Shown: positions 116-39,273 of the stretch, piece by piece
Position numbering within the stretch: the first letter of the stretch is position 1
Layout of the letters: every line of letters begins with the position of its first letter
Virus record (IMG/VR): IMGVR_UViG_3300044712_000925
Location: 1-40,882 of that record
Strand: one strand, 5' to 3'
Length of the DNA: 40,882 nt
DNA from: a virus
Translations under genes and position numbers: made by a program
Notes under the pieces: model-generated
What the model was told of the DNA's origin: nothing
What the model saw: only the letters and a program-made list of their open reading frames with translations
Databases searched by the model: none

Positions 116-176
116 TGGTTGCGGGGGGACGATTTTGTTTCCAGAATCGCTGCCGCGCCGCGTTCGGCTCAAGTAG
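116..176 (+). other. attL: core repeat plus phage-borne integrase tail
   Basis: Bases 116-127 read TGGTTGCGGGGG, identical to 39131-39142. Similarity continues to the right for about 50 bases and stops abruptly to the left of the core. In the frame starting at 117 the sequence encodes GCGGTILFPESLPRRVRLK and a stop at 174-176, close to the last residues of the integrase at 39185 (GCGGAILHPEPRRFRLK). The single indel between the copies is 6 bases and keeps the frame. On circularisation the integrase gene would continue into this sequence and regain its own 3' end. The core position is inferred from where the similarity starts. Confidence 0.7.
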
Positions 177-186
177 CCACACCGCT

Positions 187-495: not shown

Positions 496-633
496 GTGGC
501 CATGGTACCGCCGCTGGCCATCACCATGGCGACGGCGGCCGCCGTCGAGATCTTCGGCGCCGAGAACGATAGACGCGTGCGCGCCCGCCCGCGTCATGCG
601 TGCGCGAAATCGAAAGTCGTGGGGCCATCGGAA

Positions 634-915
634 AAAGGTAACAAAGGTAACTAACGCGAAGAATCGGCAGCAAAGCAAGACGCTGCGGCGCTCTACGACA
701 TATAGATAAAGGTAATTTCTTAGTTACATATAGGTAATCTGGTTACCGTCTCTGACAGTCATTTTTCTTAATTTCACAAGCCAATAGAATCAATCACTTG
801 CCAATAAATTACCTTTTCAGTTACCTCAAATCACCTTTGAAAGGTAACCTCTCTCGCCATTACAAATCAATGACTTGCGATTGATCACGAAGCCTCGTTA
901 CCTAAATTACCTTTT
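634..915. repeat. cluster of AAAGGTAAC-like repeats, candidate origin
   Basis: About eleven copies of (A)AAGGTAA(C/T) occur on both strands in an AT-rich island. Forward copies start at 634, 643 (tandem), 708, 730 and 840. Reverse copies lie at 741-747, 808-817, 820-826, 831-838 (variant), 897-903 and 906-915. Two opposed copies form the palindrome ACCTTTGAAAGGT at 833-845. Iteron-like clusters of this kind bind initiators or repressors; the phage P4 alpha primase-helicase binds GGTGAAC-type repeats at its origin. Here a primase-helicase is encoded at 27501. An origin role is inference; an operator array is the alternative. Confidence 0.6.
788..878 (+). repeat. 14-bp direct repeat pair inside the AT-rich island
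   Basis: AATCAATCACTTGC (788-801) recurs as AATCAATGACTTGC (865-878), 13 of 14 identical and 77 bases apart. Each copy is followed by inverted GTTACCT/ATTACCTTTT motifs, so a larger unit looks duplicated. This strengthens the reading of the island as a replication or regulatory site. Confidence 0.55.
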
Positions 916-940
916 CCCGACGTCAAAACCGCGAACAGGC

Positions 941-1283
941 ACCGGTGGTGCTGAATTGGCCCCCTGCATCAGGGCGCATCCCATGGCTGCACGGTTTCGC
1001 ATCGGATTCTGGACGGCGCCATGGGCGGCAAAGGCCAGGCGCCGCGGCGCTCCCGTGGGTGCTTGCGCCTGCACGATTTCCGGCCCCTAAAGCGGGCAGG
1101 CGGGGCGGGGTCCCGACCGCGCGGCGGGGGGAGACGTGCCCCTTCTTTGTGCGGATCTGGCGGAGCGAGGGGCGAGCGAAGGCCTGCGGCCGGCGCGTGG
1201 CGGGCCGCTGTGCTGCGATCAGGGTGTGGCTGGGGTGTTGGGGCCTGCGCCGCGGCGCGCGCAGCGCAGGCGGTCCTGGTGGG
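941..1283. other. GC-rich non-coding stretch, candidate cos region
   Basis: No convincing gene is present; the open frames here are Arg/Gly/Ala-rich in all directions. Bases 1095-1140 are very G-rich. They include GGCAGGCGGGGCGGGG (1095-1110) and GCGGCGGGGGGAGACGTGCC (1121-1140), which resemble the G-rich cos overhang of P2-type phages (GGCGAGGCGGGGAAAGCAC). In P2 the cohesive end lies beyond the portal gene on this side, so the location fits. The resemblance is by eye and approximate. Confidence 0.3.
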
Positions 1284-27500: not shown

Positions 27501-30176
27501 ATGGACCAACGACTACACGCCGACATCGTTTCACGCCTCGAAGCCGACTATGGCTTCAAGGCCGCGGGCAACTGGCTGCGCAAGGGCAAGTGCCCCGCCT
27601 GCGGCAAGAAGGAGATGTTCACCAACGCCGAGCATCCCTGGGTGCTGCGCTGCGCCCGAGCCAACAAGTGCGGCGTCGAGTACCACGTCAAAGAGATCTA
27701 TTCCGACCTCTTCGCGAGTTGGTCCGACCGCTACAAGCCAACGCCTGAAGTCCCGAACGCCTCGGCCGACGCCTACCTGCGCAGCGCCCGCGGTTTCGAT
27801 CTCGCCAAGATTGCCGGCTGGTACAAGCAGGAAAGCTACTACGACGGAGAGCGCAAGGCCGGCACCGCGACCGTGCGCTTCCAGCTCACCGACGCCGTGT
27901 GGTGGGAACGCCTGATCGACCGGCCGGAGCGCTTCGACCGGAAGGCCAACTTCCGCGGCCAGTACGGCGGCTCCTGGTGGCTGCCGCCGTCCATCACCGA
28001 GATCCCGGAGGAGCTGTGGATCGTCGAGGGCATCTTCGACTCGATCGCGCTCCTGCATCACGACATCCCCGCCGCCTCGGCGATGAGCAGCGTCAACTAC
28101 CCGGCCGCCGCGCTGAAGGCGCTGGCCGAGCGCTGCCTTGCCGAAGACAAGCCGCGGCCGAAACTGGTGTGGGCGTTCGACGGCGGTCGCGCCGGCCGCA
28201 GCGCCTCGCGCAAGTTCCACCAGCGCAGCGTCGAGGACGGCTGGGAAGCCTCGGCGGCGATGATCCCGATGGAGGGCAAGAAGGAACCCGACTGGAACGA
28301 CATGCACCAGCGCGGGCGCCTCGAGAAGAAGCACCTCGACGAGTACCGCTACCAGGGCTCCATCCTGCTGGCCGCCAGCGCGCAGGAAAAGGCGCTGCTG
28401 ATGTACAAGCGCAACGGCTGGAACGCCTTCAGTTTCGAGTTCGACAGCCGGCTGTTCTGGTTCAAGCTGGACATGGAGAAATATTCCAAGGTCCGCGAGC
28501 AGTACAACGACGACAAGACCAAGACGGACGAAGAGAAGCGCGACCTGGCGCTGGCCGAGTCGAACAGCGTCACCGAGATCGCCAACTGCTACCCCACGGC
28601 GCTCTACTACCAGGCGAACGCGCTCACCGACGAGAGCTGGTACTACTTCCGCATCGACTTCCCGCACGACGGCCCCTCGGTGAACAACACCTTCACCGGC
28701 GCGCAGCTGTCGTCCGCCTCCGAATTCAAGAAGCGCCTGCTCGGCATCGCCGCCGGCGCCGTCTTCACCGGCAACGCCGGACAGCTCGACGCCATGCTCA
28801 AGCGCTGGCTCGCGCGCATCAAGACCGTCGAGACCGTCGACTTCATCGGCTACAGCCGCGACCACGGCACCTGGGTCTTCAACGACGTCGCCGTCAAGGA
28901 CGGCAAGACGGTCCCGCTCAACGACGAGGACTTCTTCGACATCGGCAGGCTGTCCATCAAGAGCCTCAACCGTTCCGTCGACCTCGCGATCAATTCCGAT
29001 CTGAAGGAGTTCGGCACCGAGTGGGTCGGCCTGCTCTGGCAGTGCTACCACCACAAGGGAATCGCCGCCCTTGCCTTCTGGCTGGGCAGCCTCTTCGCCG
29101 AGCAGATCCGCCAGCGGCACAAGTCCTTCCCCTTCATCGAGCTCGTCGGCGAGCCCGGCGCCGGCAAGTCGACGCTGATCGAATTCCTCTGGCGCCTGTG
29201 CGGCCGCTCCGACTACGAGGGCTTCGACCCGAGCAAGTCGACGATGGCCGCGCGCGCGCGCAACTTCAGCCAGGTGTCCAACCTTCCCGTGGTGCTGATC
29301 GAGGGCGACCGCACCGACGAGGACCGCGCCAAGCAGAAGGGCTTCGATTGGGACGAGCTCAAGCCGCTCTACAACGGCCGCAGCGTCTATAGCCGCGGCG
29401 TGAAGAACAGCGGCAACGAGACCTACGAGCCGCCCTTCCGCGGCGCCCTGGTGATCAGCCAGAACGCGCCGGTGATGGCCTCGGACGCGATCATGCAGCG
29501 CATTTGCCATATCGGCTTCGACCTGGCGTCGCACACGCCGGATTCCAAGGCCGCGGCAGACGCGCTCGGGCAGATCGGCGTCGACAAGCTGTCGGGCTTC
29601 GTCCTCAAGGCGACGACGGCCGAGAAGGACGTCCTGGGCATGTTCGAGGACAGGCTCCAGCATCACGAGAAGCGCCTGCTCAACGTGCCGGGCGTGCGCA
29701 ACCTGCGCATCGTGAAGAACCACGCGATGCTTGCCTCGCTGGTCGACGCGCTGGTGTGCGTGATCCCGCTCAGCAAGGCAGACCTGCAAGAGACCCAGTC
29801 CTTCATCGAGGAGATGACGGCCGAGCGCCAGGAGGCCATCAACGCGGACCATCCCATCGTCCAGGAGTTCTGGGAGACCTACGACTTCCTCGACGGCGAC
29901 AACCGGCTCAACCACTCACGCGGCGGAGACACCATCTCCATCAGCCTGCCGCACTACATCAAGGTTGCCGCCGAAGCGCGGCAGCAGCTACCGGACATCG
30001 CCCAACTCAAGAAGGCCCTGCGCACCAGCCGCGTGCGCAAGTTCGTCAACTACCGGCCCGTCAATTCCGCGCTCAACGCGGCCTGGAACAAATCCAATTG
30101 CCCGCCCAACGACGAACGGTCGCTGACCGTGAAGTGCTGGGTGTTTCAAACCGCCGCATCCCGCGGCAATTCGTAA
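27501..30176 (+). CDS. Toprim primase-helicase (replication protein)
   Basis: An 891-residue replication protein. An N-terminal zinc finger (Cys31, Cys34, Cys51, Cys57) is followed by a Toprim domain with VEGIFD (E176) and VWAFDGGRAGR (D227). A long central region comes before a helicase ATPase with Walker A GEPGAGKS (550-557), LPVVLIEGDR (595-604) and sensor-like SQNAP (Asn656), and an Arg667 that may act as arginine finger. It should prime and unwind phage DNA, as P4 alpha does, instead of the P2 gpA nicking mechanism. The start at 27501 fits family N termini though no ribosome binding site is evident. A hairpin and a T7 run precede it. Confidence 0.9.
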   Translation: MDQRLHADIVSRLEADYGFKAAGNWLRKGKCPACGKKEMFTNAEHPWVLRCARANKCGVEYHVKEIYSDLFASWSDRYKPTPEVPNASADAYLRSARGFDLAKIAGWYKQESYYDGERKAGTATVRFQLTDAVWWERLIDRPERFDRKANFRGQYGGSWWLPPSITEIPEELWIVEGIFDSIALLHHDIPAASAMSSVNYPAAALKALAERCLAEDKPRPKLVWAFDGGRAGRSASRKFHQRSVEDGWEASAAMIPMEGKKEPDWNDMHQRGRLEKKHLDEYRYQGSILLAASAQEKALLMYKRNGWNAFSFEFDSRLFWFKLDMEKYSKVREQYNDDKTKTDEEKRDLALAESNSVTEIANCYPTALYYQANALTDESWYYFRIDFPHDGPSVNNTFTGAQLSSASEFKKRLLGIAAGAVFTGNAGQLDAMLKRWLARIKTVETVDFIGYSRDHGTWVFNDVAVKDGKTVPLNDEDFFDIGRLSIKSLNRSVDLAINSDLKEFGTEWVGLLWQCYHHKGIAALAFWLGSLFAEQIRQRHKSFPFIELVGEPGAGKSTLIEFLWRLCGRSDYEGFDPSKSTMAARARNFSQVSNLPVVLIEGDRTDEDRAKQKGFDWDELKPLYNGRSVYSRGVKNSGNETYEPPFRGALVISQNAPVMASDAIMQRICHIGFDLASHTPDSKAAADALGQIGVDKLSGFVLKATTAEKDVLGMFEDRLQHHEKRLLNVPGVRNLRIVKNHAMLASLVDALVCVIPLSKADLQETQSFIEEMTAERQEAINADHPIVQEFWETYDFLDGDNRLNHSRGGDTISISLPHYIKVAAEARQQLPDIAQLKKALRTSRVRKFVNYRPVNSALNAAWNKSNCPPNDERSLTVKCWVFQTAASRGNS

Positions 30177-30199: not shown

Positions 30200-31024
30200 A
30201 TGCACGATAAGACAACCCACGACCCGGCCACATGGATACGGCCGCTGTGGCTGTGCTTCGGACCCGATGGCGTAGCCGCGCTCGCTTTCTGGCTAGGCAG
30301 CCTCGTAGCAGAAGACATCCGCGCCCGCCATGGATCGTTCCCGATCCTGCAAATCACCGGCGAGCCGGGAAGCGGGAAGACGACGCTTATCGACTTTCTG
30401 TGGCGTCTGTTCGGAAGGCCTAGCTACGAAGGCTTTGCCCCGGAGAGATCAACGCAATCCGCGCTGAACGTGAAGGTTTGCGAGAACGAGAACCTGCCTC
30501 TCGTCCTTCTCGACATCGAACGTCTCGACGAGTTCAAGAGCCACGTGTTCAAGCCCCTTTACAACGGCGAGTGCCCTGTTCTTAAGACGAGCCATGGGTG
30601 CGAACCGGCCACCGTATTTCGCGGAGCGCTGGTCCTATCGCAACAAGAGCCGCATTCGTCTTTCGCCATGCTTGAGCGTTGCTTATGCATCCACCTGACC
30701 GTGGATTCGCACACGGCAGCGACACGAAATGCAGCGCACGAGATCTGGGAAATGGACGACGAAGCCCTCTCCGGTTTCATCGCTACCGCCAATTCGTCGA
30801 AGGACCGACTGCTGGAAGTCTTCGACGAGAGATTCCCGCACTACATGGCCGCACTCGATGACTTCGGTAAGCCGGTCAACAACTTACGAAAGCTCAAGAA
30901 CCACGCCCAACTTGCTGCGCTCGTCGACGCACTCGAATGCGTCGTTCCACTCGGCAGGGACGAGAAGCAAACGACCCTCGTCCTGATCTCTGAAATGTTC
31001 TCCGCCGTCGGCGGAAACCAGTAG
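30200..31024 (+). CDS. stand-alone paralogue of the helicase domain
   Basis: A 274-residue protein homologous to residues about 511-800 of the preceding primase-helicase. For example, VAALAFWLGSLVAEDIRARH aligns with IAALAFWLGSLFAEQIRQRH. Walker A GEPGSGKT (54-61) is intact, LPLVLLDIE (99-107) retains an acidic position, and the arginine at 160 is kept. The sensor-like Asn is replaced by Gln (SQQEP). It lacks the zinc finger, Toprim and the last about 95 residues. Codon use is visibly less GC-biased than its neighbour. It could be a helicase modulator, a mixed-ring subunit, or a decoy against host interference. Confidence 0.88.
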   Translation: MHDKTTHDPATWIRPLWLCFGPDGVAALAFWLGSLVAEDIRARHGSFPILQITGEPGSGKTTLIDFLWRLFGRPSYEGFAPERSTQSALNVKVCENENLPLVLLDIERLDEFKSHVFKPLYNGECPVLKTSHGCEPATVFRGALVLSQQEPHSSFAMLERCLCIHLTVDSHTAATRNAAHEIWEMDDEALSGFIATANSSKDRLLEVFDERFPHYMAALDDFGKPVNNLRKLKNHAQLAALVDALECVVPLGRDEKQTTLVLISEMFSAVGGNQ

Positions 31025-37615: not shown

Positions 37616-39185
37616 CTCAGACAATCAGCTCGAAACGTCGATCGAGGACCAGGAGCGGCTGCAGGACCGCCGCGCCGACCAGGACGGCATCGCCATCGTC
37701 GCGCGCTTCTCTGACATGGAGGTATCTGCGTCGGTGCCGACCATGCTTCGGCAGGGCGGCCGAGCGATGGTCGCCGCAGCCTTGCGCGGGGATTTCGACG
37801 TGTTGCTGATCGAAGGCCTCGATCGCTGCTGGCGCGACATCGTCGACCAGGAACAGATGATTCGCGAGCTCGAGTTCGCCGGAATCCGCATCATCGGCAT
37901 TTCTGACGGCTACGACACGCGGCACGAGGGGCGCGAGCTCACGCGCGGCGTGCGCGGCGTCGTGAATCAGGACTACCTGCGCGACCTGGCGAAGAAGGTG
38001 CACCGCGGCCTGTCTGGCCAGATCGCCCGCGGCGGCCACGCCGGCGGGATTTCCTTCGGGTATCGGTCGATCGAGGCCGGGAAGGTGCGCCACCTCGAGG
38101 TCGAGGACGAGCCGGCCACCTGGGTGCGCTGGATCTTCGATCGCTATGCCGAGGGCTGGAGCTGCCAGCACATCGCCTCGGAACTCAACCGCAAGGGCGT
38201 GAAGACGCGCAAGGGCGGAACGTGGTCGGTCTCTGCCCTCTACGGCAGCCCGAACAAGGGAAGCGGCGTGCTCAACAACGAGATCTACATCGGCCGCTAT
38301 ATCTGGAACCGGTCGCGGTGGGTGAAACACCCGAAGACGCACAAGTGGGTGCGCCTGGTGCGGCCTGAGAACGAATGGGTGATCGAGCAGCGGCCCGAGC
38401 TCCGCATCGTTTCGGACGAGCAATGGGCGGCCGCCAGGGAGCGCATGGACGCCGGCCGGCTCGGCATAGGCGTCAAGGGCAGCGGAAGCCGCGCGCGCTC
38501 TCTATTCGGCGGCCTGATGGTGTGCGGGGAGTGCGGCGGCGCCGTGGTCGCGGTGTCCGGCAGCACCTACGGCTGCGCGGCGCGGAAGGACCGCGGCACG
38601 ACGGTATGCACTGGCGTCCGCGTCGGTCGCGATGCCACCGATCGCCGTCTCCTGGCGGTGCTGCGCGAGGATCTGCTCTCGCCGGCGTCCGTCTCCAGGA
38701 TGCGGGAAAGCGCCGCGGCCTTCGTCGATCGACACCGCAAGGGCACGGCGGCAGCCGCGCGCCAGGCCTCGGCAGCGCTGGAAACGGTCCAAACCGAGAT
38801 ATCGCGCTTGGTGGATGCCATAGCCGCCACCGGCCACTCGGACGCCCTGCTGACCCGCCTGCGCGAAGCCGAGGCACGCAAAGAGGCGCTGGCCATCCAG
38901 ACGGTGCAGCGGCCGGTGGTGCAGATTCGAGTGGATGCCCTGATGGCGGCCTACCGCCGCCAGCTGCTGACCCTCGAAGAAGCCCTGAAGGCCGACTTCG
39001 AGAAGGCGCGGCCCCTGCTGCGCGAGTACTTCGGCGAGATCAAGATCGAGGAAACCACCGACAGCGCCTGGGCAGCCTTCGCTGCGGATCCAGGGCGCCT
39101 GCTACTGAAAGCGGTCGGTGATTCTAGAAGTGGTTGCGGGGGAGCGATTTTGCACCCAGAACCGCGCCGCTTCCGTCTCAAATAG
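37566..39185 (+). CDS. int: large serine recombinase (phage integrase)
   Basis: A 539-residue integrase. The catalytic region is YSRYSSDNQ with Ser17 as nucleophile and Arg15, and LDRCWRD (Arg87, Arg90). The recombinase domain (about 160-275) and zinc ribbon (Cys320, Cys323, Cys337, Cys348) are followed by a coiled coil (about 365-440) that controls directionality. It cuts att sites with 2-base overhangs. The last residues (SGCGGAILHPEPRRFRLK) are encoded by the right att sequence, so integration changes the C terminus. Reading into attR places it at the extreme right end. No excisionase (recombination directionality factor) was recognised. Confidence 0.93.
   Translation: MTNATTQQRAGTYSRYSSDNQLETSIEDQERLQDRRADQDGIAIVARFSDMEVSASVPTMLRQGGRAMVAAALRGDFDVLLIEGLDRCWRDIVDQEQMIRELEFAGIRIIGISDGYDTRHEGRELTRGVRGVVNQDYLRDLAKKVHRGLSGQIARGGHAGGISFGYRSIEAGKVRHLEVEDEPATWVRWIFDRYAEGWSCQHIASELNRKGVKTRKGGTWSVSALYGSPNKGSGVLNNEIYIGRYIWNRSRWVKHPKTHKWVRLVRPENEWVIEQRPELRIVSDEQWAAARERMDAGRLGIGVKGSGSRARSLFGGLMVCGECGGAVVAVSGSTYGCAARKDRGTTVCTGVRVGRDATDRRLLAVLREDLLSPASVSRMRESAAAFVDRHRKGTAAAARQASAALETVQTEISRLVDAIAATGHSDALLTRLREAEARKEALAIQTVQRPVVQIRVDALMAAYRRQLLTLEEALKADFEKARPLLREYFGEIKIEETTDSAWAAFAADPGRLLLKAVGDSRSGCGGAILHPEPRRFRLK
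39131..39185 (+). other. attR: core repeat within the integrase 3' end
   Basis: TGGTTGCGGGGG (39131-39142) equals 116-127. To its right the sequence GATTTTG, CCAGAA and CGCCGC match attL with substitutions and a 6-base in-frame gap. To its left (phage side) there is no similarity. The right part would be host or adjacent-prophage sequence and provides the last residues of the integrated integrase gene. Confidence 0.7.
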
Positions 39186-39273
39186 CCCCGCCGAGGGCGC
39201 AGGATAACTCAGCAGCTGGGGCGATACCATCCTCGACGAAGCCTGACGGCGAGACGGCGCAATAGGCTTGACC

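What the first reader, a model, noticed from the sequence alone, without database searches (positions are those of the whole stretch)
634..915. AAAGGTAAC repeat array as a possible P4-type replication origin
About eleven copies on both strands, a 13-bp palindrome and a 14-bp duplicated flank sit in the only AT-rich island of the left end. The phage replicates with a primase-helicase, and P4 alpha (same functional type) binds GGTGAAC-like repeats. The distance from the gene (about 27 kb, or closer on the circle) also resembles P4, where origin and initiator gene are separate.
Basis: partly seen in the sequence, partly recalled or inferred. Interest (0 to 1): 0.6.

Follow-up and report, generated by a model that had tools for sequence, protein, structure and literature searches.

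The report
Conserved phage replication start site
A roughly 300-base, AT-rich stretch of repeats near one end of this virus is most likely where its DNA copying starts: the same piece, laid out almost to the base, goes with one particular copying enzyme through many bacterial viruses, even in one that packages its DNA with unrelated machinery.

Summary
Window 623-920 is a non-coding, 39% GC island (window 65%) with ten RGTAAY sites on both strands at 637-911; shuffles of the island give 0.7. It is a conserved element: four repeat clusters in a fixed 275-bp frame, outer pairs inverted to each other, IHF-consensus sites at fixed positions between them. I found it in 96 further contigs and genome loci. 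It goes with the toprim primase-helicase (27501-30176), which is in all 37 element-bearing viral records of 32 kb or more. It is absent from 18 records with a similar terminase but other replication genes. In an Azospirillum phage-plasmid with unrelated packaging genes the same frame recurs with a changed motif (GGTCAC/GGTGAC). Other primase-helicase phages carry arrays of quite different motifs, some just 3' of the primase gene. The same blind scan recovers the known crr and ori of phage P4. The element is therefore most likely the replication origin, iterons plus IHF sites read by the primase-helicase. Packaging, integrase-arm and operator readings fit worse. It works like P4 ori, but the protein is not demonstrably a P4-alpha family member. 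No binding or replication was shown.

The parts
623..920 (.). Whole element: proposed replication origin, about 39% GC, non-coding, with inverted end boxes CATCGGAAAAA... / ...TTTTCCCGA
637..651 (+). Left outer iteron pair GGTAACaaaGGTAAC (offsets +0, +9)
711..747 (.). Inner left iteron cluster: 711+, 733+, 742- (offsets +74, +96, +105); relatives also have a copy at +85
788..800 (+). IHF-consensus site AATCAATCACTTG at the conserved offset +151
808..848 (.). Inner right iteron cluster: 808-, 820-, 843+ (offsets +171, +183, +206), including the palindrome ACCTTTGAAAGGT
865..877 (+). IHF-consensus site AATCAATGACTTG at the conserved offset +228
897..911 (-). Right outer iteron pair, inverted to the left pair (offsets +260, +269)
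1099..1117 (+). cos site by similarity (GGCGGGGCGGGGTCCCGAC); neighbour, not part of the origin
   Evidence: cos of Smp131 from PMC3931495
27501..30176 (+). Toprim primase-helicase (PHROG 1139), proposed initiator
29829..30173 (+). C-terminal domain of the primase-helicase (residues about 777-891), winged-helix-like in the model; proposed iteron reader
30200..31024 (+). Helicase-only paralogue of primase-helicase residues 508-772, lacking the C-terminal domain; possible modulator

Best explanation
Window 623-920 is the vegetative replication origin of this P2-like phage. Protomers of the phage's toprim primase-helicase bind the RGTAAY iterons, most likely through their C-terminal winged-helix-like domain. 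IHF bends the DNA between the clusters (788 and 865), so that the four clusters are gathered into one complex of fixed geometry. The AT-rich DNA in or beside it opens, the helicase loads and the primase primes, and theta-type replication proceeds without a gpA nick. Shown here: the array, its fixed geometry, the IHF-consensus positions, linkage to the primase-helicase, independence of terminase, cos and integrase type, and motif change inside a constant frame. Inferred: protein binding, IHF binding, strand opening and origin function.
For: (1) Of 45 viral records found by the inner-cluster pattern alone, 38 encode the primase-helicase: all 37 of 32 kb or more and one of 21.9 kb. Six without it are fragments under 25 kb; the 30.8-kb record G071 ends 3.6 kb beyond gpD and matches only through an antirepressor domain. 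(2) 28 of 32 bacterial genomes with the element encode the gene; the other four hold contig-truncated or degraded prophages. (3) Sampling by terminase similarity instead: RGTAAY array in 12 of 20 primase-A records, plus a GGTTAC variant and one array cut by the contig end, against 0 of 14 primase-B and 0 of 4 other records. (4) Geometry: most of 101 elements span 275 bp within a few bases; IHF consensus in 52 of 67 distinct elements against 2.3 expected, at three fixed offsets. (5) Azospirillum phage-plasmid NZ_CP039641: primase-helicase, no relative of the P2 terminase, yet sites at +0, +96, +105, +169, +180, +205, +269 and IHF at +150, +227 as in the window, with the motif changed to GGTCAC/GGTGAC. 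(6) phi3, PaBSM and Carl1 carry arrays of other motifs directly 3' of the primase gene. (7) The same blind scan recovers P4's annotated crr and ori as its two top hits.
Against: No binding, footprint or replication data. The Foldseek matches of the C-terminal domain are not significant (best E 0.37), although winged-helix proteins are prominent among them. Fusion of the same domain to antirepressors leaves open a role other than reading the origin. In many relatives cos lies at a nearly constant distance, which a packaging site would also show. GC skew does not turn at the element. Six primase-A records of the terminase sample show no array; their contigs end 1-5.5 kb beyond the portal gene with no recognisable cos, so the region is probably missing, but this was not proved.
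Confidence: 0.86

Rival explanations
1. Packaging site: the repeats are a cosB-like terminase (gpM/gpP) binding array next to cos, with IHF between the repeats as in phage lambda cosB.
For: The element lies about 170-200 bp from a recognisable cos in the window, Dobby, phiCTX, Hal4908 and many relatives. Lambda cosB also combines repeats with an IHF site (general knowledge).
Against: Phages whose terminase is closer to the window's (Carl1 66%, Mana and AP3 65%, Fels-2 64%) lack it, while D14A/Dobby (58%), Hal4908 (57.5%) and 2F_1 (46%) have it or a variant. It is present with an unrelated terminase in the Azospirillum phage-plasmid, far from the terminase genes. Arrays in phi3, PaBSM and Carl1 lie by the primase.
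Confidence: 0.05
2. Operator, centromere or antirepressor-controlled regulatory array rather than an origin; the shared C-terminal domain would be a regulator-binding module.
For: The C-terminal domain of the primase-helicase recurs in AntA, Bro-N and P22_AR_N antirepressors, some in the same phages. No annotated CDS fixes the function.
Against: Linkage is to the primase-helicase; most element-bearing records show no separate antirepressor copy of the domain. Ten sites with IHF in a 275-bp frame are unusual for an operator, and P4's proven origin gives the same kind of signal.
Confidence: 0.06
3. Integrase or excisionase arm sites of attP (the element lies between attP and cos in phiCTX).
For: In phiCTX the array starts about 170 bp from the attP core; attP sites also combine repeats and IHF.
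Against: The window phage has a large serine recombinase, not a tyrosine integrase, yet the element is the same. In Smp131 the predicted attP (30,738-30,783) is 2.3 kb from the array.
Confidence: 0.02

Closest known systems
Bacteriophage P4 ori/crr with alpha protein
   Same: Repeats on both strands, some about 9-11 bp apart, read by a toprim primase-helicase with a C-terminal DNA-binding domain; ori separate from the gene, crr just 3' of it; both are the top two hits of the scan used here.
   Different: Motif GGTGAACA rather than RGTAAY; P4 has two cis regions, the window one; no IHF consensus in P4; Pfam D5_N and Pox_D5 found in alpha and not in the window protein.
Bacteriophage P2 gpA origin
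   Same: P2-like virion genes, cos region and gene order.
   Different: P2 has a nick site inside gene A; no gpA match in the primase-A records and no such array in gpA phages.
phiCTX attP-cos region (D13409) and Dobby/Smp131 intergenic region
   Same: The same element, spans of 273-277 bp.
   Different: Unannotated in those records; the Smp131 paper does not discuss a phage origin in the passages found.
Iteron plasmid origins with IHF (pSC101 and R6K type)
   Same: Iteron clusters plus IHF bends plus AT-rich DNA (general knowledge).
   Different: Iterons on both strands in four clusters; initiator is a primase-helicase, not a Rep protein.

Membership tests
P4-type replicon (alpha, ori, crr) | Single protein with primase (toprim), helicase and C-terminal origin-binding domain | tested here: inconclusive
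   Toprim_2 E 2.6e-9; DUF5906 helicase only 0.018; C-terminal domain winged-helix-like but Foldseek not significant
P4-type replicon (alpha, ori, crr) | Sequence homology to alpha across primase, D5_N helicase and Pox_D5 C-terminus | tested here: not met
   hhalign only residues 146-270 (toprim), probability 86%; no D5_N or Pox_D5 hit in the window protein, both present in alpha
P4-type replicon (alpha, ori, crr) | Type 1 repeats TGTTCACC/GGTGAACA | tested here: not met
   Window repeat is RGTAAY
P4-type replicon (alpha, ori, crr) | Two cis regions, ori and crr | tested here: not met
   Only one array above background in the window; two in P4
Iteron-type replication origin | Clustered short repeats in AT-rich non-coding DNA | tested here: met
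Iteron-type replication origin | Host bending-protein (IHF) sites between the repeats | tested here: met
   52 of 67 distinct elements against 2.3 expected, at fixed offsets; consensus only, binding not shown
Iteron-type replication origin | Linked inheritance with a cognate initiator gene | tested here: met
Iteron-type replication origin | Autonomous replication of a fragment with the initiator | not testable with these tools
   needs a plasmid assay
cosB-like packaging site | Follows the terminase gene and lies beside cos | tested here: not met
Tyrosine-integrase arm-site array | Goes with a tyrosine integrase and its attP | tested here: not met
   Window phage has a serine recombinase

The most novel reading that the evidence does not exclude
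A modular initiator-origin cassette in which the recognition motif has switched many times (RGTAAY, GGTTAC, GGTCAC, GTCACA/ATCACA, TGTCAG, ACGGTA) while a frame of about 265-275 bp, and in several lineages the IHF offsets, stayed constant. The reader domain is shared with phage antirepressors, so antirepressors or the helicase-only paralogue may compete at, and regulate, the origin.
Probability: 0.35. Interest if true: 0.72.

Novelty: new variant of a known kind. Interest (0 to 1): 0.62.

Why it matters
P2-like phages without gpA (phiCTX, Dobby, Smp131 and relatives in Pseudomonas, Stenotrophomonas, Xanthomonas, Cupriavidus and Ralstonia) have no assigned origin in the records and papers I could reach. 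This gives a precise 300-bp candidate and a named initiator that can be tested in a laboratory strain. The natural series of changed motifs in one constant frame would show how an initiator and its origin change specificity together, and the small module could serve as a plasmid origin.

Tried and rejected
GC-skew inflection: cumulative skew follows gene strand, no turn at the element. Two pattern scans returned nothing because I had miscounted a spacer; the corrected pattern worked. A looser pattern over primase records was useless. Covariation of the C-terminal domain with the motif: its identity to the window is 40-47% in three phages of the same clade and 28-36% in those with other motifs, but the rest of the protein diverges too, so this does not discriminate. 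PDB sequence search with the C-terminal profile: nothing. Foldseek: winged-helix proteins prominent but none significant. The 33-bp match of the Dobby element to Azotobacter plasmids lies in an ACTGAT array beside mobI; not pursued. The blind scan misses the Azospirillum element and gives one coding false positive in P2 (8.7).

Full report
OBSERVATION. The window is one IMG/VR viral record of 40,882 bases. It is a P2-like phage (portal, terminase P, scaffold O, Ogr) with a large serine recombinase and a toprim primase-helicase at 27501-30176 (PHROG 1139). The island at 623-920 is 39% GC in a 65% GC window and holds ten RGTAAY sites, 637-911, five on each strand; shuffles of the island give 0.67. 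An unbiased scan of all 6-mers ranks it first, with -log10 p 12.2 against 6.6 at most in simulated windows. The island is a large imperfect dyad: the arms 628-651 and 897-920 are 83% complementary over 24 nt, and the element profile hits relatives on both strands.

RELATIVES. blastn finds the right half in phiCTX, Dobby, Sirocco and D14A. In the phiCTX record it lies between the annotated attP core and cosR, with no annotation of its own. Aligned elements of the window, Dobby, phiCTX, Hal4908 and Smp131 share four clusters. A degenerate pattern of the inner left cluster only found 63 viral contigs and 33 bacterial genome loci. In about nine of ten of the 101 elements the first-to-last repeat distance is 275 bp within a few bases, although the outer pairs were not part of the pattern. 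Where a cos motif was recognised, it nearly always lies 373-400 bp from the cluster start. Among 67 distinct elements, 52 carry an exact IHF consensus (WATCARNNNNTTR) against 2.3 expected, at offsets -26, +79 and +156 from the core; the window has the last two, at 788 and 865.

LINKAGE TO THE PRIMASE-HELICASE. The gene is in 28 of 32 bacterial genomes with the element. The four others hold a prophage with a truncated terminase, a contig that ends inside the tape-measure gene, an integrase-only remnant, or no recognised prophage gene in the stretch read. Of 45 viral records, 38 encode the gene, among them all 37 of 32 kb or more; six without it are fragments under 25 kb. The 30.8-kb record G071 matches only through an antirepressor that shares the C-terminal domain; its contig ends 3.6 kb beyond gpD, before the place of the primase gene. 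In the reverse direction, primase records read as whole contigs carry the element when the region before cos is inside the contig (G079, G083 and a degenerate copy in G086); G078, G082 and G085 end at dam or the portal gene.

INDEPENDENCE FROM THE TERMINASE. Sampling 38 records of at least 30 kb by terminase similarity gave 20 with this primase, 14 with a second primase type (Carl1-like), one gpA-like and three unassigned. RGTAAY arrays were found in 12 of the 20 (11, G121), with a GGTTAC array in L180 and an array cut by the contig end in L187, and in none of the other 18. Six of the 20 show none; their contigs end 1-5.5 kb past the portal gene with no cos recognised. The element profile found nothing in P2, Fels-2, M16-3, Alfacinha3, Mannheimia 1127AP1, Carl1, Mana, Menos or AP3.

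THE PHAGE-PLASMID. Azospirillum sp. TSH100 p2 carries the primase-helicase (46.6%) but a terminase of another Pfam family, with no detectable relation to the P2 one. At about 28971-29275 of L279 (33.4 kb in the record) it has the flank CATCGGAAAAAGGTAAC, as in the window. Its sites lie at +0, +9/10, +96, +105, +169, +180, +205, +269 with IHF sites at +150 and +227; the window has +0, +9, +96, +105, +171, +183, +206, +269 and +151, +228. The motif is GGTCAC/GGTGAC at most sites instead of GGTAAY. It was found by looking at the most AT-rich window; the 6-mer scan did not rank it, and the profile sees only its left end (E 0.05).

OTHER MOTIFS. More distant primase-helicase phages carry arrays of other motifs: ESSI2 GTCACA/ATCACA with the same CATCGGAAAAA flank, PfPro TGTCAG, 2F_1 GGTTAC, JY29 ACGGTA with a long inverted terminal repeat, and phi3 GGAACA and PaBSM TGGAAG just 3' of the primase gene. 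Carl1 (second primase type) has CCACGG, also 3' of its primase. As positive control, the scan applied to phage P4 returns its annotated crr (14.3) and ori (10.0) as the two best hits. gpA phages stay near background, except one coding false positive in P2 (8.7).

MECHANISM. The likely reader is the C-terminal domain, residues about 777-891. AlphaFold gives it pLDDT 86 with the order H-E-H-H-E-H-E, and winged-helix DNA-binding proteins (TcpK of pCW3, HSF) are prominent in the Foldseek list, though not significantly. For P4 alpha, binding of origin repeats by a winged-helix domain is reported (PMC4234260, citing Yeo et al. 2002). I propose that the primase-helicase binds the clusters, IHF folds them together, and helicase loading and priming follow. 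All steps after the sequence facts are inferred.

FILING. It works like P4 ori. Sequence membership in the alpha family fails: only the toprim region aligns, and D5_N and Pox_D5 are absent. I call it a new variant of the iteron-type origin. My literature search covered only open PubMed Central papers, so an earlier description (for example in the phiCTX papers) cannot be excluded.

Noticed in passing
window 30200-31024 (+): A 274-aa helicase-only paralogue of primase-helicase residues 508-772 (44% identity) follows the primase gene and stops where the C-terminal domain would begin; similar second copies occur in G005, G010, G018, G028 and G052. It may modulate the initiator.
   Followed up: partly
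L151 1447-2307 (-), L152 946-1785 (+), L153 1000-1791 (+): The C-terminal domain of the primase-helicase is also the C-terminus of antirepressors with three different N-terminal domains (AntA, P22_AR_N, Bro-N).
   Followed up: partly
window 116-181 and 39131-39187: Imperfect repeat starting TGGTTGCGGGGG at the left end and at the 3' end of the serine recombinase gene: probable prophage ends. On the circle the primase is then about 9.5 kb from the element, not 27 kb. Lysozyme and other reverse-strand genes to the right look foreign to the prophage.
   Followed up: partly
L279 28971-29275: Phage-plasmid of Azospirillum sp. TSH100 with a plasmid RepA and this phage-type origin: apparently two replicons in one element.
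   Followed up: partly
CP075758 and NZ_CP077991 (not fetched beyond hits): Two P. aeruginosa records deposited as plasmids (36.7 and 47.5 kb) carry the primase-helicase and an element 93-95% identical to Dobby's: probably phiCTX-like phage circles.
   Followed up: no
L278 2397-2696: Azotobacter plasmid pAcX50d has an ACTGAT array beside mobI that includes a 33-bp box nearly identical to part of the Dobby element.
   Followed up: no
L145 757-795, L137 5494-5532: Elements left behind with few or no phage genes around them in P. fluorescens PS858 and Stenotrophomonas sp. SY1.
   Followed up: partly
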